In this document: positions 1 through 58,109 of the stretch, piece by piece | Numbering within the stretch: position 1 is the stretch's first letter | How the letters are laid out: the number at the start of each line of letters is the position of its first letter | Assembly (NCBI GenBank): GCA_947496235.1 | Contig: CANMCE010000019.1 | Span: 1 to 58,109 of the forward strand | Direction: 5' to 3' | DNA length: 58,109 nt | DNA from: an uncultured Glaciecola sp. | Lineage (GTDB): Bacteria; Pseudomonadota; Gammaproteobacteria; Enterobacterales; Alteromonadaceae | Notes under the pieces: generated by a model | What the model saw: only the letters and a program-made list of their open reading frames with translations | Told to the model about the DNA's origin: nothing | Database searches by the model: none | Translations under genes and position numbers: made by a program

Positions 1-360
1 AACTGGGGTGTGTCTATGCAATACCAAATCTTTAAGCTCAGCCAATATCTAAGAGGCTGGATAAACTACTTTGGTATCGCCAGTGGATATCAACGGTGTG
101 TCGAACTCGATCATTGGATCAGACGCAGAGTGAGAATGGCCTACTGGCGACAATGGCGTAAGCCACGAACTAAAGTAAGAAGCTTAATGAAATTAGGTGT
201 GCATGTTCAGGCCGCAGTGGCTTGTGGCTTAACCAGCAAAGGACCATGGCGAAGTGCTAAATCCCCGGGGATCAACCAAGCTTTATCGCTTGATTATTTA
301 GCATCCGAAGGGCTTTATTCGCTACGCGATGGGTGGATCGCACTTCACTATCCTAAGTGA
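1..360 (+). CDS. ltrA: Group II intron reverse transcriptase/maturase, C-terminal fragment
   Basis: This is the last 119 codons of an intron-encoded protein that begins before the window; the frame is open through base 1. The visible part is the maturase (domain X / GIIM) segment: LRGWINYFG near the start, then RRRVRMAYWRQWRKPRTK and a C-terminal segment ending in LHYPK. In the family this domain binds the intron RNA for splicing and reverse splicing. The catalytic YxDD motif would lie upstream and cannot be checked, so activity is unknown. The stop is followed directly by intron domain V. An ATG at 16 is internal, not a start. Confidence 0.85.
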   Translation, partial: NWGVSMQYQIFKLSQYLRGWINYFGIASGYQRCVELDHWIRRRVRMAYWRQWRKPRTKVRSLMKLGVHVQAAVACGLTSKGPWRSAKSPGINQALSLDYLASEGLYSLRDGWIALHYPK

Positions 361-429
361 AACGCCCTGTGCGGAGCCGCATGCAGGGTGTTGTGGGGGC
401 TGAGGGTTAGAGACCCTTGGCTACCCGAT
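1..429 (+). mobile_element. Group II intron, 3' part (IIC-like)
   Basis: The sequence holds the end of an intron-encoded reverse transcriptase followed by a typical intron 3' end. Domain V can be folded at about 362-391: two complementary arms (CGCCCTG with CAGGGTG, TGCGG with CCGCA) with a two-base bulge. The catalytic triad reads CGC (363-365), the form reported for class IIC introns. A second hairpin at about 399-420 fits domain VI, and the intron ends near GAT at 427-429. The 5' part lies outside the window. The intron runs opposite to the neighbouring cassette-like gene and ends at a GTTATAA core beside that gene's stop codon, as expected for introns that target attC sites. The exact last base (429 or 430) and the IIC class are inferences. 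Confidence 0.8.
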
Positions 430-20803: not shown

Positions 20804-22795
20804 TTAGTTAATTTTTACCGTTGCGCCTTTAATGCTAACTGGGCCGCCCGCTTTGATATCGGCAGCACTACTGGCTTTAGCGCTCAGTTTGCCTTTGGCA
20901 TCTAAACTTATATTGCCCGATGTACTAATGCTGATCCCGCCCCTTTCAATGGCAATAAAAGAGTTACCCACTTTCAATGTGATATTGCTGCTAGCCTCTA
21001 AGCAGATATTTTTTGCTTTTAAATAACTGTCTTTGTCCGAATTAATCGACAGATTCCCCGCATAGTCATAACTTCCATTGCTCCCAACACTCAAAGAAAT
21101 AGACTGGCCAACTTCTTTGGCTTCCTTACCTTCAATCGAAAGATTGAAGTCTTTACCCACTTTCTGGGTACTATCGCCATCAATACTGTCAAATCTATTA
21201 TTATGAACCTTGGAATGTTGATTTTTCTTAACCGTCAGATGGCGATCGCCACCAACGGTTTCAAAACAATCTTGAGTTATGGAGATGTCTTGATTCTTAG
21301 CTGCATGAATAAATAATTGTTCATCGCCTTTTTTATCCTCAAAGCGAATCTCACTAAACGTACCTGCATTGCCAGTAGTGCGAGAGCGAAAACCTGACAT
21401 TGTGGAATGCTGCGGTAGAGGATAAGGAGGTAAGTTACTGCCATTGTAAATACAGGCCACAACTATGGGTTGATTGGGATCTCCTTGTAAAAAGTCTACA
21501 AGAACTTCTTGCCCAACTCTGGGAATATACACACTTCCCCAATTTTTACCGGCCATGGATTGTGCAACACGAATCCAGCAAGAACTGTTTTCATTGCCTT
21601 TAGTGTACTGATCCCAATGAAACTGAACTTTGATTCTGCCGTATTTATCGGTCCAGATTTCTTCTTTGTTTTTACCCACTACAGTAGCCGTTTGTGGGCC
21701 GCGCATAATTGGCGAAGGTATTGTTACTGGTGGCCTAAAGCTTAAACGGGCGGGCATGGCAGTTGCGGAAAATTCGAATAATGAGTGCTGATTAAGCTCA
21801 TCTTGCTCAAACAACTCATCCGAACGAATAACACACTCGATGCTAGTCACTAAATGCTGCGCATTTTGGTCTTCTCGCATATGGTCTTTTAAAGTAAATT
21901 TGACCCCAGATTCAAGGGTTCGTATGTCGCCGGAAAACCAAGTTTGCGAAAACGATGTATTTTCCCTTTCCATTAGAACTTTACTGTAGTGTTCACCAGT
22001 TTTACGTTCGTTGTAACCTAGTTGATATTCCGAGCGTTCAAAATGGGACAGTTGCTTTACTTTAGGATCCTTAGTGCTGGCTTGTAGATTTTTATTCGGC
22101 AATTCAAAATCATAACTGGAAAGGCTAAAGCTACCGCTTTTTACTTGTTGCTTATTTTCCCACTGCTTTATGCCTTCTACGCCAAGGTGTTTGTTCTGCT
22201 CAACCAATTCAAAATATGGAATCTTGCCTATGTCTTGTAGTCGGGCGTTATCGTCATGCAGAATAAGGCTATGTTTACTTTTTGTGTGGGAAAACGTGTA
22301 GAAAATACCTTCTTGTTGCATGATGCGGCTAATAAAATCAAAGTCTGTTTCGCCAAATTGCACCACATAATCTTGTTTAGCATATTTCTGCGAAAGCTTG
22401 TCTTCGTAGTCTGAAAAGCCCAATTCGTCAAATACAGTTTTTATGATCTCGGGATAGGATTTTTGTTGAAAAATACGGCACTTTTTACTCAGATTTAATA
22501 AATAAATCCAAGGTCTTATGACAGCAACATAGGCTGCGTTTTGTTTGATGTTCTCTTTTTGCTCAAAGGATGTAACAACGCCATTGATGTGACGTGTATG
22601 CTTTTCTGTTTCTAAGTGAACAGTCAGTGTTTTGCCTAATATATCGGTGAAATTTAACGACTCGTCGTTGCTCACCATTTCAACTTCTAGGGTGAAAGGT
22701 TGACCTAAGGCTTCTTTAAATTTTGCTTGGCGGAGCACTAAAGTATCGTCTCGCAACGGCGTACTCATACTGACAAGTCTTTTTTGAACGGGCAT
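20804..22795 (-). CDS. vgrG: T6SS spike protein VgrG (TssI)
   Basis: This is a 663-residue VgrG, the trimeric tip of the secreted tube. The frame opens at 22864, but ATG 22795, preceded by GGTGAG, gives the usual N-terminus. The gp27-like part spans about residues 10-350 (FTLEVEMVS, QKYAKQDYVVQFGETDFDFISRIM-type segment), and the gp5 OB-fold follows (WTDKYGRIKVQFHWD; WIRVAQSMAGKNWG; PRVGQEVLVDFLQGDP). The C-terminal beta-helix needle has repeated short strands and ends in SIKGATVKIN. No extra effector domain is attached, so cargo must be separate. It is first in the minus-strand operon that ends with the DUF4280 tip. Confidence 0.96.
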   Translation of the reverse strand: MPVQKRLVSMSTPLRDDTLVLRQAKFKEALGQPFTLEVEMVSNDESLNFTDILGKTLTVHLETEKHTRHINGVVTSFEQKENIKQNAAYVAVIRPWIYLLNLSKKCRIFQQKSYPEIIKTVFDELGFSDYEDKLSQKYAKQDYVVQFGETDFDFISRIMQQEGIFYTFSHTKSKHSLILHDDNARLQDIGKIPYFELVEQNKHLGVEGIKQWENKQQVKSGSFSLSSYDFELPNKNLQASTKDPKVKQLSHFERSEYQLGYNERKTGEHYSKVLMERENTSFSQTWFSGDIRTLESGVKFTLKDHMREDQNAQHLVTSIECVIRSDELFEQDELNQHSLFEFSATAMPARLSFRPPVTIPSPIMRGPQTATVVGKNKEEIWTDKYGRIKVQFHWDQYTKGNENSSCWIRVAQSMAGKNWGSVYIPRVGQEVLVDFLQGDPNQPIVVACIYNGSNLPPYPLPQHSTMSGFRSRTTGNAGTFSEIRFEDKKGDEQLFIHAAKNQDISITQDCFETVGGDRHLTVKKNQHSKVHNNRFDSIDGDSTQKVGKDFNLSIEGKEAKEVGQSISLSVGSNGSYDYAGNLSINSDKDSYLKAKNICLEASSNITLKVGNSFIAIERGGISISTSGNISLDAKGKLSAKASSAADIKAGGPVSIKGATVKIN

Positions 22796-54892: not shown

Positions 54893-55744
54893 CTATTGGA
54901 TAGGGGAAAGCAACATTGGATTGGTTACTAAGTTTCTAACGCCATGAGCATGATCTTCATTAAATTCATTGTCCTCACACCACTCCGCGACTGAACTTAT
55001 ATCGACCTTGGTAACCTGAGGCCTAACCGACCAGCTAACTTGTAATGGCGAGCCTTTTTCATTGTAACTAGGTCCTGTAGTTGAACCTAAATACTGCACT
55101 GGAATACCTGTATTTGACGGAATATTCGGCGCTTGATAATAGCCTTGTATCACTTCAATTTCCGTCATGTCCTCAAAATCTCGACCATTGCCGTCATTGG
55201 TTAATACTATCACCTGTGCTTCTACACGAAGTTGTGGATTCATAGTCGAATCAGATAAGCAAGCGCCTAGGGTTGGTCCCGGGCTTATTTGGGCTGAAGA
55301 AAATACATAATGAACCTCCAAAGTATCGCCTACCTCAAGACTTTTACCTTTAGCAGGACATACTTTGCCTGTGTATTTTGATTGCTCGGCTTTACTTAGT
55401 GGGTGATTATATAGATAACCCGAGTTTTTACCTTGTCCATCACCATTGCCGGCATAAGTAGTAAAATCGCCACCTTTGTGTTCAGCACCTTTATGGAAAT
55501 GAATATTACACAAATTCAGCTCACTTCTATTTGGAGCCAGAGAAAACTCCCTTTCATTGGTACCGTAGGTTTGGTCTATATCTCGAGGAGATTGCGGTCC
55601 AAATCCTTTACCTTTGGTGTTTTGAGCTAAAGCACTTTTTTGTTGCGCAATTACGCTGTTACTTACAGTTTTTTCTTCAGCGTAAATACTCATTGAAATC
55701 GTAATACTAGCTATAGCGCTTAAACAGCTTATTTTTTTTATCAT
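54893..55744 (-). CDS. Delta-class carbonic anhydrase, exported
   Basis: This is a 283-residue protein. The frame opens at 55795, but ATG 55744 gives a signal peptide (MIKKISCLSAIASITISMSIYA). The mature protein carries the motif LCNIHFHKGAEHKGGDF (about 90-106), whose His residues fit the zinc site of delta carbonic anhydrases, first known from diatoms and present in some marine bacteria. Further matches are LEVHYVFSS, QVIVLTNDG and VSWSVRPQV. The enzyme would hydrate CO2 in the periplasm. Conserved Cys pairs (in LCNIHFH, KVCPAKG, GACLSD and EWCEDN) suggest disulfides. It stands alone. Confidence 0.82.
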   Translation of the reverse strand: MIKKISCLSAIASITISMSIYAEEKTVSNSVIAQQKSALAQNTKGKGFGPQSPRDIDQTYGTNEREFSLAPNRSELNLCNIHFHKGAEHKGGDFTTYAGNGDGQGKNSGYLYNHPLSKAEQSKYTGKVCPAKGKSLEVGDTLEVHYVFSSAQISPGPTLGACLSDSTMNPQLRVEAQVIVLTNDGNGRDFEDMTEIEVIQGYYQAPNIPSNTGIPVQYLGSTTGPSYNEKGSPLQVSWSVRPQVTKVDISSVAEWCEDNEFNEDHAHGVRNLVTNPMLLSPIQ

Positions 55745-55938
55745 TATGACATTCACTTTGGTTAGTTCTATTAACCTAGAAGTGTAAACAGTCAAATTTA
55801 ATAAGACTTAACTAGAAAATTAAATATTCATAAGCAGAACATTAAAAGTTTATGAATAAAATTAGAAAAGCGTATGATGACTTGTCTCTCGGGAAAATTT
55901 GGAATAATTGGCACTAAGCAAAAATTACAGAGGGTCTG

Positions 55939-56714: not shown

Positions 56715-56795
56715 TTAACTGCTGTAGCAATAAATCTTTGAGAATTTCCTCCTTAGTAGTTGAGGCTTACTAATTATTTTGATAGGTTTACGAGC

Positions 56796-56849
56796 ATGAA
56801 AAAGACATTTCTTGAAACTACTTCTTTTAACTGGTGGCGCTCACTCTGA
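56796..56849 (+). CDS. Candidate Trp leader peptide upstream of trpS
   Basis: This 17-codon reading frame encodes MKKTFLETTSFNWWRSL. Codons 13 and 14 (56832-56837) are consecutive TGG, the rarest codon doubled, and it stops 100 bases before trpS. This is the hallmark of a ribosome-sensed attenuator for tryptophan. A hairpin follows at once. The ribosome-binding site is weak (GAG at 56792-56794). It is too short for normal gene calling. The assignment rests on the Trp pair, the hairpin and the downstream gene. Confidence 0.65.
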   Translation: MKKTFLETTSFNWWRSL

Positions 56850-56852
56850 GCG
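56838..56852 (+). promoter_or_regulatory. Hairpin abutting the Trp codons, candidate attenuator element
   Basis: CGCTCA (56838-56843) pairs with TGAGCG (56847-56852) around a three-base loop, starting one base after the two TGG codons. A ribosome stalled there would melt it. Other short pairings are possible further down: CACTG (56854-56858) with CAGTG (56917-56921), and CTGGA (56880-56884) with TCCAG (56915-56919). I cannot identify the terminator stem with certainty. Confidence 0.5.
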
Positions 56853-56949
56853 GCACTGAATTCGTACATTCTTTTGCTGCTGGAAGGTAGCTAAGTTTGT
56901 AAATTCTTTATATCTCCAGTGGCAATCTTCATTCACTTAGAGATATATC

Positions 56950-57969
56950 ATGAGCAATAAAACAACCACAGAAAAAGAAATTATTCTCACTGGCGATAGA
57001 GCAACGGGGCCACTCCATCTTGGCCATTACGTTGGTTCGCTAAAGCAACGGGTTTCCTTACAAGACAAGCATGAGCAAACGATACTTGTAGCTGATATGC
57101 AAGGGCTGACAGATAACGCAAACAACCCTGCAAAAGTGTCATCCAATATTCTCAACGTAGTTGCTGATTATTTAGCGGTAGGTATAGATCCGAACAAAAC
57201 TACTATATGCCTACAATCTCAGCTCCCAGCCCTTGCTGAGCTGACCATGTATTACAGTAACTTAGTTACAATCGCGAGACTTGAGCGCAATCCAACAGTT
57301 AAAAGCGAAATAAAAAGCAAAGGATTTGAACGTTCTGTCCCCGCAGGCTTTTTAACTTATCCTATATCTCAAGCGGCTGATATTACCGCATTTAATGCTA
57401 CGCTGATTCCTGTAGGCGATGATCAGCTTCCAATGCTTGAACAAACAAATGAAATAGTCAGAAAGGTAAATTCATTGGCAGGTAAACACGTGCTTAATGA
57501 ATGCAAACCTTTATTGAGCAATGCTTCGCGTTTACCAAGCACGGACGGTAAAAACAAAATGAGTAAAACAATGGGCAATGCCATCAACCTTGGCGCTTCT
57601 GAGAAAGAGATAAGAGATGCTGTTCGCAGTATGTACACAGACCCAAACCACTTGAGAGTTGAAGATCCTGGCAACGTAGAAGGTAATGTTGTCTTCACTT
57701 ACTTAGAAGCTTTTCATCCAGACATAAACTACGTTAGTCAACTTAAAGAACACTACCAAAGAGGCGGCCTTGGTGATGGCACAACAAAGAAAATCCTCGA
57801 AGAATGCTTAAATGAATTATTAGCGCCAATTCGAAAGCGTAGAGAACACTACCTGAATGACAAAGCTCATCTAATAGATATATTATGGACTGGAAGCGAA
57901 GTCTCGCGCGCGAGGACTGATAGTGTGTTATCGAGGGTGAAAGATATTTTTGGACTAAATATTTTTTGA
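56950..57969 (+). CDS. trpS: Tryptophanyl-tRNA synthetase, type II
   Basis: This is a 339-residue class I synthetase that charges tRNA-Trp. The HIGH-type motif is GPLHLGHYVG (about 20-29) and the KMSKS-type motif is KNKMSKTMGN (about 201-210). The sequence follows the second lineage of bacterial TrpRS (GDRATGPLHLGHYVGSLKQRV, PAGFLTYPISQAADI, PVGDDQLPMLEQTNEIV), as in Deinococcus TrpRS II and the inducible, indolmycin-resistant enzyme of Streptomyces, and unlike the E. coli enzyme (GNYMGAL). A housekeeping copy is therefore likely elsewhere. The Trp-rich leader upstream suggests control by charged tRNA-Trp. Confidence 0.93.
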   Translation: MSNKTTTEKEIILTGDRATGPLHLGHYVGSLKQRVSLQDKHEQTILVADMQGLTDNANNPAKVSSNILNVVADYLAVGIDPNKTTICLQSQLPALAELTMYYSNLVTIARLERNPTVKSEIKSKGFERSVPAGFLTYPISQAADITAFNATLIPVGDDQLPMLEQTNEIVRKVNSLAGKHVLNECKPLLSNASRLPSTDGKNKMSKTMGNAINLGASEKEIRDAVRSMYTDPNHLRVEDPGNVEGNVVFTYLEAFHPDINYVSQLKEHYQRGGLGDGTTKKILEECLNELLAPIRKRREHYLNDKAHLIDILWTGSEVSRARTDSVLSRVKDIFGLNIF

Positions 57970-58042
57970 TTTGTTAAATAAAGATTTGGTATAGATGTAA
58001 ATTAAGGTCTTTTTCGTACGTAAACCGGAAGCAAGCAACGAA

Positions 58043-58109
58043 GAATCGTTATTGAGCTAGCTACATAGAATCGTTATTGAGCTAGCTACATAGAATCGTT
58101 ATTGAGCTA
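58043..58109. repeat. 25-bp tandem repeat at the window edge
   Basis: Two full copies (58043-58067 and 58068-58092) and 17 bases of a third run to the last base. The copies are identical. Each starts GAATCGTTATTGAGC and contains a TAGCTAGCTA-like palindromic part. There is no spacer, so it is not a CRISPR array. It may continue beyond the window. Confidence 0.9.

What the first reader, a model, noticed from the sequence alone, without database searches (positions are those of the whole stretch)
56796..57969. Tandem-Trp leader peptide before a type II tryptophanyl-tRNA synthetase
A 17-codon frame (MKKTFLETTSFNWWRSL) with two adjacent TGG codons lies about 100 bases before trpS. A hairpin begins one base after the Trp pair. 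The gene is of the TrpRS-II lineage, whose Streptomyces member gives indolmycin resistance and is known to be controlled by a Trp leader. A Gram-negative marine version would be an independent or shared example of antibiotic- or starvation-induced aminoacyl-tRNA synthetase control.
Basis: partly seen in the sequence, partly recalled or inferred. Interest (0 to 1): 0.75.

Follow-up and report, generated by a model that had tools for sequence, protein, structure and literature searches.

The report
Tryptophan-sensing leader of a spare synthetase
A second, horizontally moving tryptophanyl-tRNA synthetase gene carries in front of it a tiny two-tryptophan sensor peptide whose RNA appears to hide the gene's ribosome-binding site until ribosomes stall for lack of charged tryptophan tRNA; similar arrangements recur across a bacterial phylum.

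Summary
The frame MKKTFLETTSFNWWRSL (56796-56849) is conserved: 78 of 80 named relatives of this TrpRS-II have a short Trp-Trp frame upstream, against 25 of 502 random windows and 0 of 13 housekeeping trpS upstream regions. The mechanism differs from the one implied: the window has no terminator (score -51). Its leader RNA has two conserved, mutually exclusive states. OFF: hairpins H1, H2 and H3, which hides the trpS Shine-Dalgarno (SD). ON: a covarying helix between H2 and the anti-SD arm (94.4% paired). In a home-made cotranscriptional model a ribosome stalled on either Trp codon removes H3; a released ribosome, or one at the stop, does not; equilibrium folding shows no such effect. So: probably translational attenuation. 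New points: promoter register puts +1 on the leader ATG in 36 of 57, with no SD, predicting a leaderless sensor mRNA; 18 of 18 leader-bearing genomes tested have two TrpRS; 19 of 25 phylum-wide TrpRS-II loci have the frame; 9 of 40 scored leaders look terminator-based instead. No Rfam family matches. Induction is untested.

The parts
56760..56765 (+). -35 element TTGAGG; blastn similarity to the closest relative (L022) also begins here
   Evidence: not picked up by the simple consensus scan
56780..56788 (+). extended -10 element TG-A-TAGGTT, placing the predicted transcription start at 56795-56796, at the leader ATG (one base off the majority register)
   Evidence: not picked up
56796..56849 (+). 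leader peptide gene MKKTFLETTSFNWWRSL, predicted leaderless
56832..56837 (+). tandem Trp codons, predicted stall site
56833..56857 (+). H1 (strands 1:2), can form after the ribosome leaves
   Evidence: 97.7% of cells paired in 44 aligned leaders
56848..56856 (+). strand 2 GAGCGGCAC, alternative partner of strand 3 when the ribosome covers strand 1
   Evidence: 94.3% paired, little covariation
56858..56906 (+). H2 (strands 3:4), OFF-state hairpin
   Evidence: inner helix 80.2%, outer 67.5% paired
56874..56888 (+). strand 3 TTGCTGCTGGAAGGT, pairs with 4 (OFF) or with 5 (ON)
56909..56947 (+). H3 (strands 5:6), hairpin that hides the trpS SD
   Evidence: 86.2% paired
56912..56925 (+). strand 5 ATCTCCAGTGGCAA, holds the anti-SD; pairs with the SD (OFF) or with strand 3 (ON)
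56939..56942 (+). trpS Shine-Dalgarno AGAG
56950..57969 (+). trpS2, tryptophanyl-tRNA synthetase type II, 339 aa; Gln where the type I enzyme has the His of its DLHAIT motif

Best explanation
This is a ribosome-mediated translational attenuator that senses Trp-tRNA and controls an accessory TrpRS. A sigma70 promoter starts the RNA at or next to the leader AUG, so the leader is read without an SD. If Trp-tRNA is plentiful the ribosome reads to the stop codon; strand 2 is covered or paired in H1, so strand 3 pairs with 4 (H2), strand 5 stays free and captures the trpS SD (H3): OFF. If TrpRS-I fails or Trp is short, the ribosome stalls on the Trp pair, H1 cannot form, strand 2 holds strand 3 and keeps H2 from forming, and strand 5, when transcribed, pairs with strand 3 instead of the SD: ON. 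Shown from sequence: frame, conservation, both conserved pairings, promoter register, absence of an SD core and of a terminator. Inferred: transcription start, stalling, order of folding events, induction.
For: Trp-Trp frame in 78 of 80 relatives. In 44 aligned leaders H1 is 97.7%, H3 86.2%, the inner H2 helix 80.2% paired. Helix 3:5, incompatible with H2 and H3, is 94.4% paired over 572 cells, with 48 double-change cells against 16.6 in shuffles; 32-62% when slid by 1-3 columns; the unguided RNAalifold consensus chooses H1 plus 3:5. Kinetic model, window: released or at stop H2=1.0 and H3=1.0; stalled on Trp 1 or 2, 3:5=0.84-1.0 and H3 at most 0.05; same at about 20, 40, 80 nt/s. 40 of 76 leaders: mean SD openness 0.22 released, 0.42/0.43 stalled, 0.16 at stop; stalled on Trp 1 above released in 33, below in 4; shuffled-core control, one shuffle each and slightly coarser settings, 15 up and 19 down. 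Promoter pattern TGnTA...T at the exact register in 36 of 57, one base upstream in 7, 0-2 at each other shift; SD core before trpS 50 of 57, before the leader 0 of 57. Terminator score of the window -51.4. 18 of 18 leader-bearing genomes tested have a type I TrpRS as well.
Against: Equilibrium folding shows no effect of the stalled ribosome (means 0.225 against 0.235-0.241, 78 leaders), and stepwise minimum-energy folds of the stalled window pass through H2 before strand 5 appears and return to H2+H3 at full length; the switch rests on kinetics in a home-made, uncalibrated model. In the window the SD falls into a weak local hairpin after the switch, so its openness hardly rises (0.25 to 0.28). 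With the ribosome one codon past the Trp pair the model restores H2 (0.96-1.0) but not H3 (0.04-0.22). Of six leaders, L023 switches only in part (3:5 0.30-0.64), and L033 has 3:5 0.15-0.33 when released and keeps H3 0.22-0.67 when stalled. The 2:3 pairing hardly covaries (4 double-change cells). The simple promoter scan lists no plus-strand promoter at the leader. SD-like cores are rare upstream anyway (0-6 of 57 in 20 other placements), so 0 of 57 is weak by itself. The 44 aligned and 40 simulated leaders are my selections. Opening costs of 8.9 (OFF) and 2.3 kcal/mol (ON) for the window (62 of 76 leaders computed) compare imposed states and predict nothing. No transcript, footprint or induction data.
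Confidence: 0.75

Rival explanations
1. Classical transcription attenuation: H2 is a terminator, strand 2:3 the antiterminator.
For: 9 of 40 scored leaders are positive in a recalled terminator formula: Serratia L089 +29.8 and L099 +29.2, a betaproteobacterial MAG L100 +19.9, Shewanella carassii L090 +22.7, unnamed L133 +17.3, L135 +7.7, L145 +3.9, L148 (outside the class) +53.6, and the plasmid copy L152 +27.4.
Against: The window scores -51.4, and so do below zero the other 30 of the 40, among them every Vibrio, Alteromonas, Pseudoalteromonas and Photobacterium leader scored. In this group the SD-hiding hairpin and the 3:5 helix are conserved.
Confidence: 0.1
2. Mixed control: the SD-hiding state also exposes the untranslated RNA to Rho or RNase, so RNA level and translation change together. 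This can hold together with the best explanation.
For: Common consequence of blocked translation (general knowledge, no call).
Against: Nothing here tests it.
Confidence: 0.35
3. The leader is mainly a reinitiation or coupling device, not a Trp sensor.
For: Leader frames without an excess of regulatory codons are common (PMC4833913, passages seen).
Against: Trp-Trp kept in 78 of 80 relatives while the N-terminal part drifts; in the window 100 bases separate the leader stop from the trpS start.
Confidence: 0.05

Closest known systems
trpS/trpS2 attenuators of Streptomyces (PMC1262725, passages seen: computational prediction; experiments of Vecchione and Sello 2010 recalled, paper not held)
   Same: Trp leader before an accessory TrpRS; attenuator logic
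   Different: described as classical attenuators; the window hides the SD, has six competing strands, and lies in another phylum
trp operon leader of gammaproteobacteria (E. coli trpL; recalled)
   Same: tandem Trp codons; strands 1:2, 2:3, 3:4 compete
   Different: here a synthetase gene, no terminator, two further strands 5 and 6, predicted leaderless (E. coli trpL has an SD; recalled); Rfam gives no family match over the leader
erm/cat translational attenuators (recalled; erm passage only in a search listing)
   Same: stalled leader ribosome frees a hidden SD
   Different: stall expected at a codon lacking charged tRNA, not at a drug-peptide complex (inferred)
Leaderless trpL of Sinorhizobium meliloti (PMC7298713, passages seen)
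   Same: leader mRNA starts with the ATG of the Trp leader frame
   Different: trp biosynthesis gene with a transcription terminator
Indolmycin-resistant second TrpRS (PMC9437257, passages seen; a tryptophan-tRNA ligase in the putative Pseudoalteromonas indolmycin cluster, PMC5069768, passages seen)
   Same: second, distantly related TrpRS
   Different: no resistance measured here; no biosynthetic cluster looked for

Membership tests
Ribosome-mediated attenuation by a leader peptide | short conserved frame with repeated codons of the amino acid concerned | tested here: met
   78 of 80 relatives
Ribosome-mediated attenuation by a leader peptide | mutually exclusive conserved RNA pairings | tested here: met
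   44 of 76 leaders aligned
Ribosome-mediated attenuation by a leader peptide | expression rises when the cognate charged tRNA falls | not testable with these tools
   needs a reporter assay
Classical transcription attenuator (trp type) | intrinsic terminator with U tract between leader and gene | tested here: not met
   window score -51.4; the pattern scan lists none in the leader
Translational attenuator (erm/cat type) | SD of the target gene in a conserved hairpin | tested here: met
Translational attenuator (erm/cat type) | stalled ribosome frees the SD | tested here: inconclusive
   kinetic model removes H3; equilibrium shows no effect; window SD still in a weak hairpin
Leaderless mRNA | 5' end at the start codon | not testable with these tools
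   predicted from promoter register
Leaderless mRNA | no SD before the start codon | tested here: met
   0 of 57 leaders have AGGA, GGAG or GAGG at -16 to -4; background 0-6 of 57
TrpRS-II auxiliary synthetase | TrpRS-II sequence beside a separate TrpRS-I | tested here: met
TrpRS-II auxiliary synthetase | indolmycin resistance | not testable with these tools
   only a sequence hint: Gln at the His position in 79 of 81 sequences, motif not found in 2; role of that His recalled
T-box or another Rfam 15 family | covariance model match over the leader | tested here: not met
   no match at gathering score over the leader; only weak unrelated matches below it

The most novel reading that the evidence does not exclude
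A mobile 'spare synthetase' cassette spread across Pseudomonadota: leaderless promoter, Trp-Trp sensor peptide, bistable RNA and TrpRS-II travel together, give a host inducible protection when its own TrpRS is blocked, and in evolution keep the same sensor while swapping the output between SD hiding and transcription termination. Starting the sensor frame without an SD would let it report charging even when ordinary initiation is impaired.
Probability: 0.45. Interest if true: 0.78.

Novelty: new variant of a known kind. Interest (0 to 1): 0.62.

Why it matters
It would be a widespread family of Trp-sensing leaders absent from Rfam 15, showing how an accessory synthetase stays silent until the main one fails, with a sensor frame read without an SD and a natural series of homologous leaders whose output differs (SD hiding or terminator). 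The model makes concrete predictions about which ribosome position flips the RNA, so an old question, how attenuators change output in evolution, becomes directly testable.

Tried and rejected
Equilibrium SD openness with ribosome masks: no effect, kept as evidence against. One search (opening cost with hard constraints) gave zeros in every ON state; discarded and redone with soft constraints, which compares imposed states only (62 of 76 leaders; 14 skipped). Transcription terminator in the window: not found. Rfam: no family over the leader. Two weak matches of model R1 (G225, G244) have no TrpRS in the 2.0 and 1.6 kb fetched. R1 reaches only E 0.1-0.9 or nothing on the five Aeromonas loci given to it, and misses L090, L093 and L100 and several distant loci, so genome counts with it are lower bounds. 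HipT toxin escape (HipT phosphorylates the first Ser of KMSKS in E. coli TrpS, PMC6581861, passages seen): TrpRS-II keeps that Ser in 81 of 81 sequences, so no support. One search read minus-strand loci unoriented; redone. Papers: ten searches; the titles and abstract starts listed showed no report of a trpS leader in Pseudomonadota, but several lists were capped (for example 30 of 41, 15 of 81), most subscription papers are not held, Vitreschak 2004 was not looked up (it appears in a reference list), and supplements could not be read. A Shewanella survey of cis-regulatory RNAs does not mention trpS (PMC2659441, term search and passages).

Rows dropped: of 81 sequences (80 relatives plus window), L038 and L084 have no Trp-Trp frame, and L083, L090 and L093 had an unclear trpS start or SD; 76 remained for the alignment and promoter work, 57 after removing near-identical promoters. 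One search used 78 (L038, L083, L084 left out). L134 gave no row. Frames were sought from ATG only. Trees, protein structure prediction, and viral or metagenome scans were not run.

Full report
What is there. The window's last gene, 56950-57969, is a type II tryptophanyl-tRNA synthetase. The frame MKKTFLETTSFNWWRSL lies at 56796-56849, its two TGG codons at 56832-56837, and its stop is 100 bases before trpS. The genome has a second TrpRS of type I, 27% identical, behind a frame that looks like rpe by eye. The 12 other genomes of the genus that were searched give only matches of about 30% identity, the type I gene, and weaker ones.

Is it more than chance? A scan of named genomes kept the best 80 relatives. 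78 of 80 have a short frame with Trp-Trp upstream, many ending in WWRS plus one or two residues, while the N-terminal part drifts. Controls: 25 of 502 random 350-base windows of the same loci, 0 of 13 type I upstream regions. L038 and L084 lack it.

The RNA. From the first Trp codon on, the window folds into three hairpins in a row, better than all 200 shuffles: H1 overlapping the Trp codons, H2, and H3 holding the trpS SD. On an alignment of 44 of the 76 usable leaders, chosen by me because they align well, this OFF fold pairs in 84.7% of cells (H1 97.7%, inner H2 helix 80.2%, outer H2 helix 67.5%, H3 86.2%). A different helix, between the H2 apex (GCUGCUGG-A-AGGU in most) and the anti-SD strand (AUCU-CCAGUAGC), excludes both H2 and H3, yet pairs in 94.4% of 572 cells, with 48 double-change cells against 16.6 in shuffles, and 32-62% when slid by up to three columns. 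RNAalifold, unguided, picks H1 plus this helix. A third pairing, strand 2 with strand 3, is kept in 94.3% of cells but hardly varies. Two incompatible, conserved pairings are what a switch needs.

How it may switch. At equilibrium the position of the ribosome makes no difference, and stepwise minimum-energy folds of the stalled window end in H2 plus H3 again. I therefore wrote a simple cotranscriptional folding model in the style of DrTransformer (method recalled, not calibrated). In the window, with the ribosome released or at the stop codon, H2 and H3 form completely; stalled with Trp 1 or Trp 2 in the A site, the 3:5 helix forms in 0.84-1.0 and H3 in at most 0.05, at about 20, 40 and 80 nt/s; one codon further on, H2 returns (0.96-1.0) but H3 stays at 0.04-0.22. 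Of the other five leaders run there, L022 and L039 switch cleanly, L070 mostly, L023 in part (3:5 0.30-0.64), and L033 leaks when released (3:5 0.15-0.33) and keeps H3 at 0.22-0.67 when stalled. Over 40 of the 76 leaders, mean SD openness was 0.22 released, 0.42 and 0.43 stalled, 0.16 at the stop; stalled on Trp 1 exceeded released in 33 and fell below in 4. With shuffled cores (one each, slightly coarser settings) the means were 0.34, 0.35 and 0.28 for released, Trp 1 and stop, with 15 up and 19 down against released, 17 up and 11 down against stop. In the window the freed SD falls into a weak local hairpin, so its openness goes only from 0.25 to 0.28. The polarity, ON when stalled, is therefore a model result plus logic, not a measurement.

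Promoter and leaderlessness. I aligned 76 leaders (57 after removing near-duplicates) by nothing but their ATG. T and G at -15/-14, T at -12, A at -11, T at -7 and TTG at -35 to -33 stand out, the standard sigma70 numbering with +1 on the A of the leader ATG. The pattern TGnTA...T occurs at that exact register in 36 of 57, one base upstream in 7 (the window is one of these by eye), and in 0 to 2 at each other shift. An SD core precedes trpS in 50 of 57 and the leader in 0 of 57; other upstream placements give 0 to 6 of 57. The simple consensus scan lists no plus-strand promoter here, so the case rests on conservation. The simplest reading is an mRNA that begins at or within a base or two of the AUG. 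A leaderless Trp leader is known from Sinorhizobium meliloti (PMC7298713, passages seen).

Spread. A covariance model of the element found 26 of 295 genomes of the order; two weak hits have no TrpRS nearby. Of the other 24, the window and 17 more were seen to precede TrpRS-II; six were not checked. Of 18 leader-bearing genomes tested, 18 have both TrpRS types; of 12 genomes of the class with a more distant relative and no Trp-Trp frame, 11 have only that one TrpRS at E 1e-15. These 12 proteins are 37-54% identical to the query, so lineage and copy number are confounded. In a phylum sample, 25 of 398 genomes have TrpRS-II at E up to 1e-90; some of them were also in the order sample. 19 of the 25, the window included, have an ATG-started Trp-Trp frame upstream, 6 of 8 outside the class; three of those six match the model at E 5e-10, 3e-6 and 5e-5. 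TrpRS-II of five genomes is 82-85% identical to the window's, while their TrpRS-I is 60-61% (four genomes of another family) or 78% (one of the same family), which points to horizontal transfer; blastn similarity to L022 begins at the -35 element, 56760, and to six other relatives further in.

Change of output. With a recalled terminator formula (recalled E. coli trp attenuator +36), 9 of 40 scored leaders are positive: two Serratia, Shewanella carassii, a betaproteobacterial MAG, a plasmid copy, L148 outside the class, and unnamed L133, L135 and L145, the last two weakly. The other 31, the window (-51) and every Vibrio, Alteromonas and Photobacterium leader scored among them, are negative. 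The same kind of sensor thus appears with two outputs.

Function. TrpRS-II proteins carry Gln where type I has the His of the DLHAIT motif (79 of 81 sequences, motif not found in 2); that this His matters for indolmycin is recalled. Indolmycin resistance of second TrpRS copies is described in PMC9437257 (passages seen). Nothing here measures resistance or induction.

Known or new. A Trp attenuator before trpS2 was predicted in Streptomyces (PMC1262725, passages seen); its experimental proof is recalled. The element studied here matches no Rfam 15 family, and ten paper searches listed no report of it in Pseudomonadota, in a library that lacks most subscription papers and with several lists capped. 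I rate it a new variant of a known kind.

Noticed in passing
L152, L153, L154 (plasmid records of E. coli and Klebsiella): TrpRS-II with a Trp-Trp leader sits on records listed as plasmids, in one case near an IS26 transposase gene; 91 plasmid records hold a relative of the protein.
   Followed up: partly
L155: An Acinetobacter copy shows no ATG-started Trp-containing short frame in the 300 bases upstream; whether it is the only TrpRS was not tested.
   Followed up: no
window 58042-58109: Perfect 25-base tandem repeat, 2.7 copies, at the very end of the contig; perhaps why the assembly stops there.
   Followed up: no
window 360-429: Group II intron match in Rfam, 49 bits.
   Followed up: no
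window 54893-55795, minus strand: Delta carbonic anhydrase family protein (PF10563, E 6e-76), a family I recall mainly from diatoms.
   Followed up: no
window 21061-21287: Weak matches of the leader model R1 on both strands (19 and 15 bits, E 0.009 and 0.2); probably chance.
   Followed up: no
L084: The Celerinatantimonas locus has no Trp-Trp frame but a weak model match (17 bits, E 0.035), perhaps a decayed leader.
   Followed up: partly
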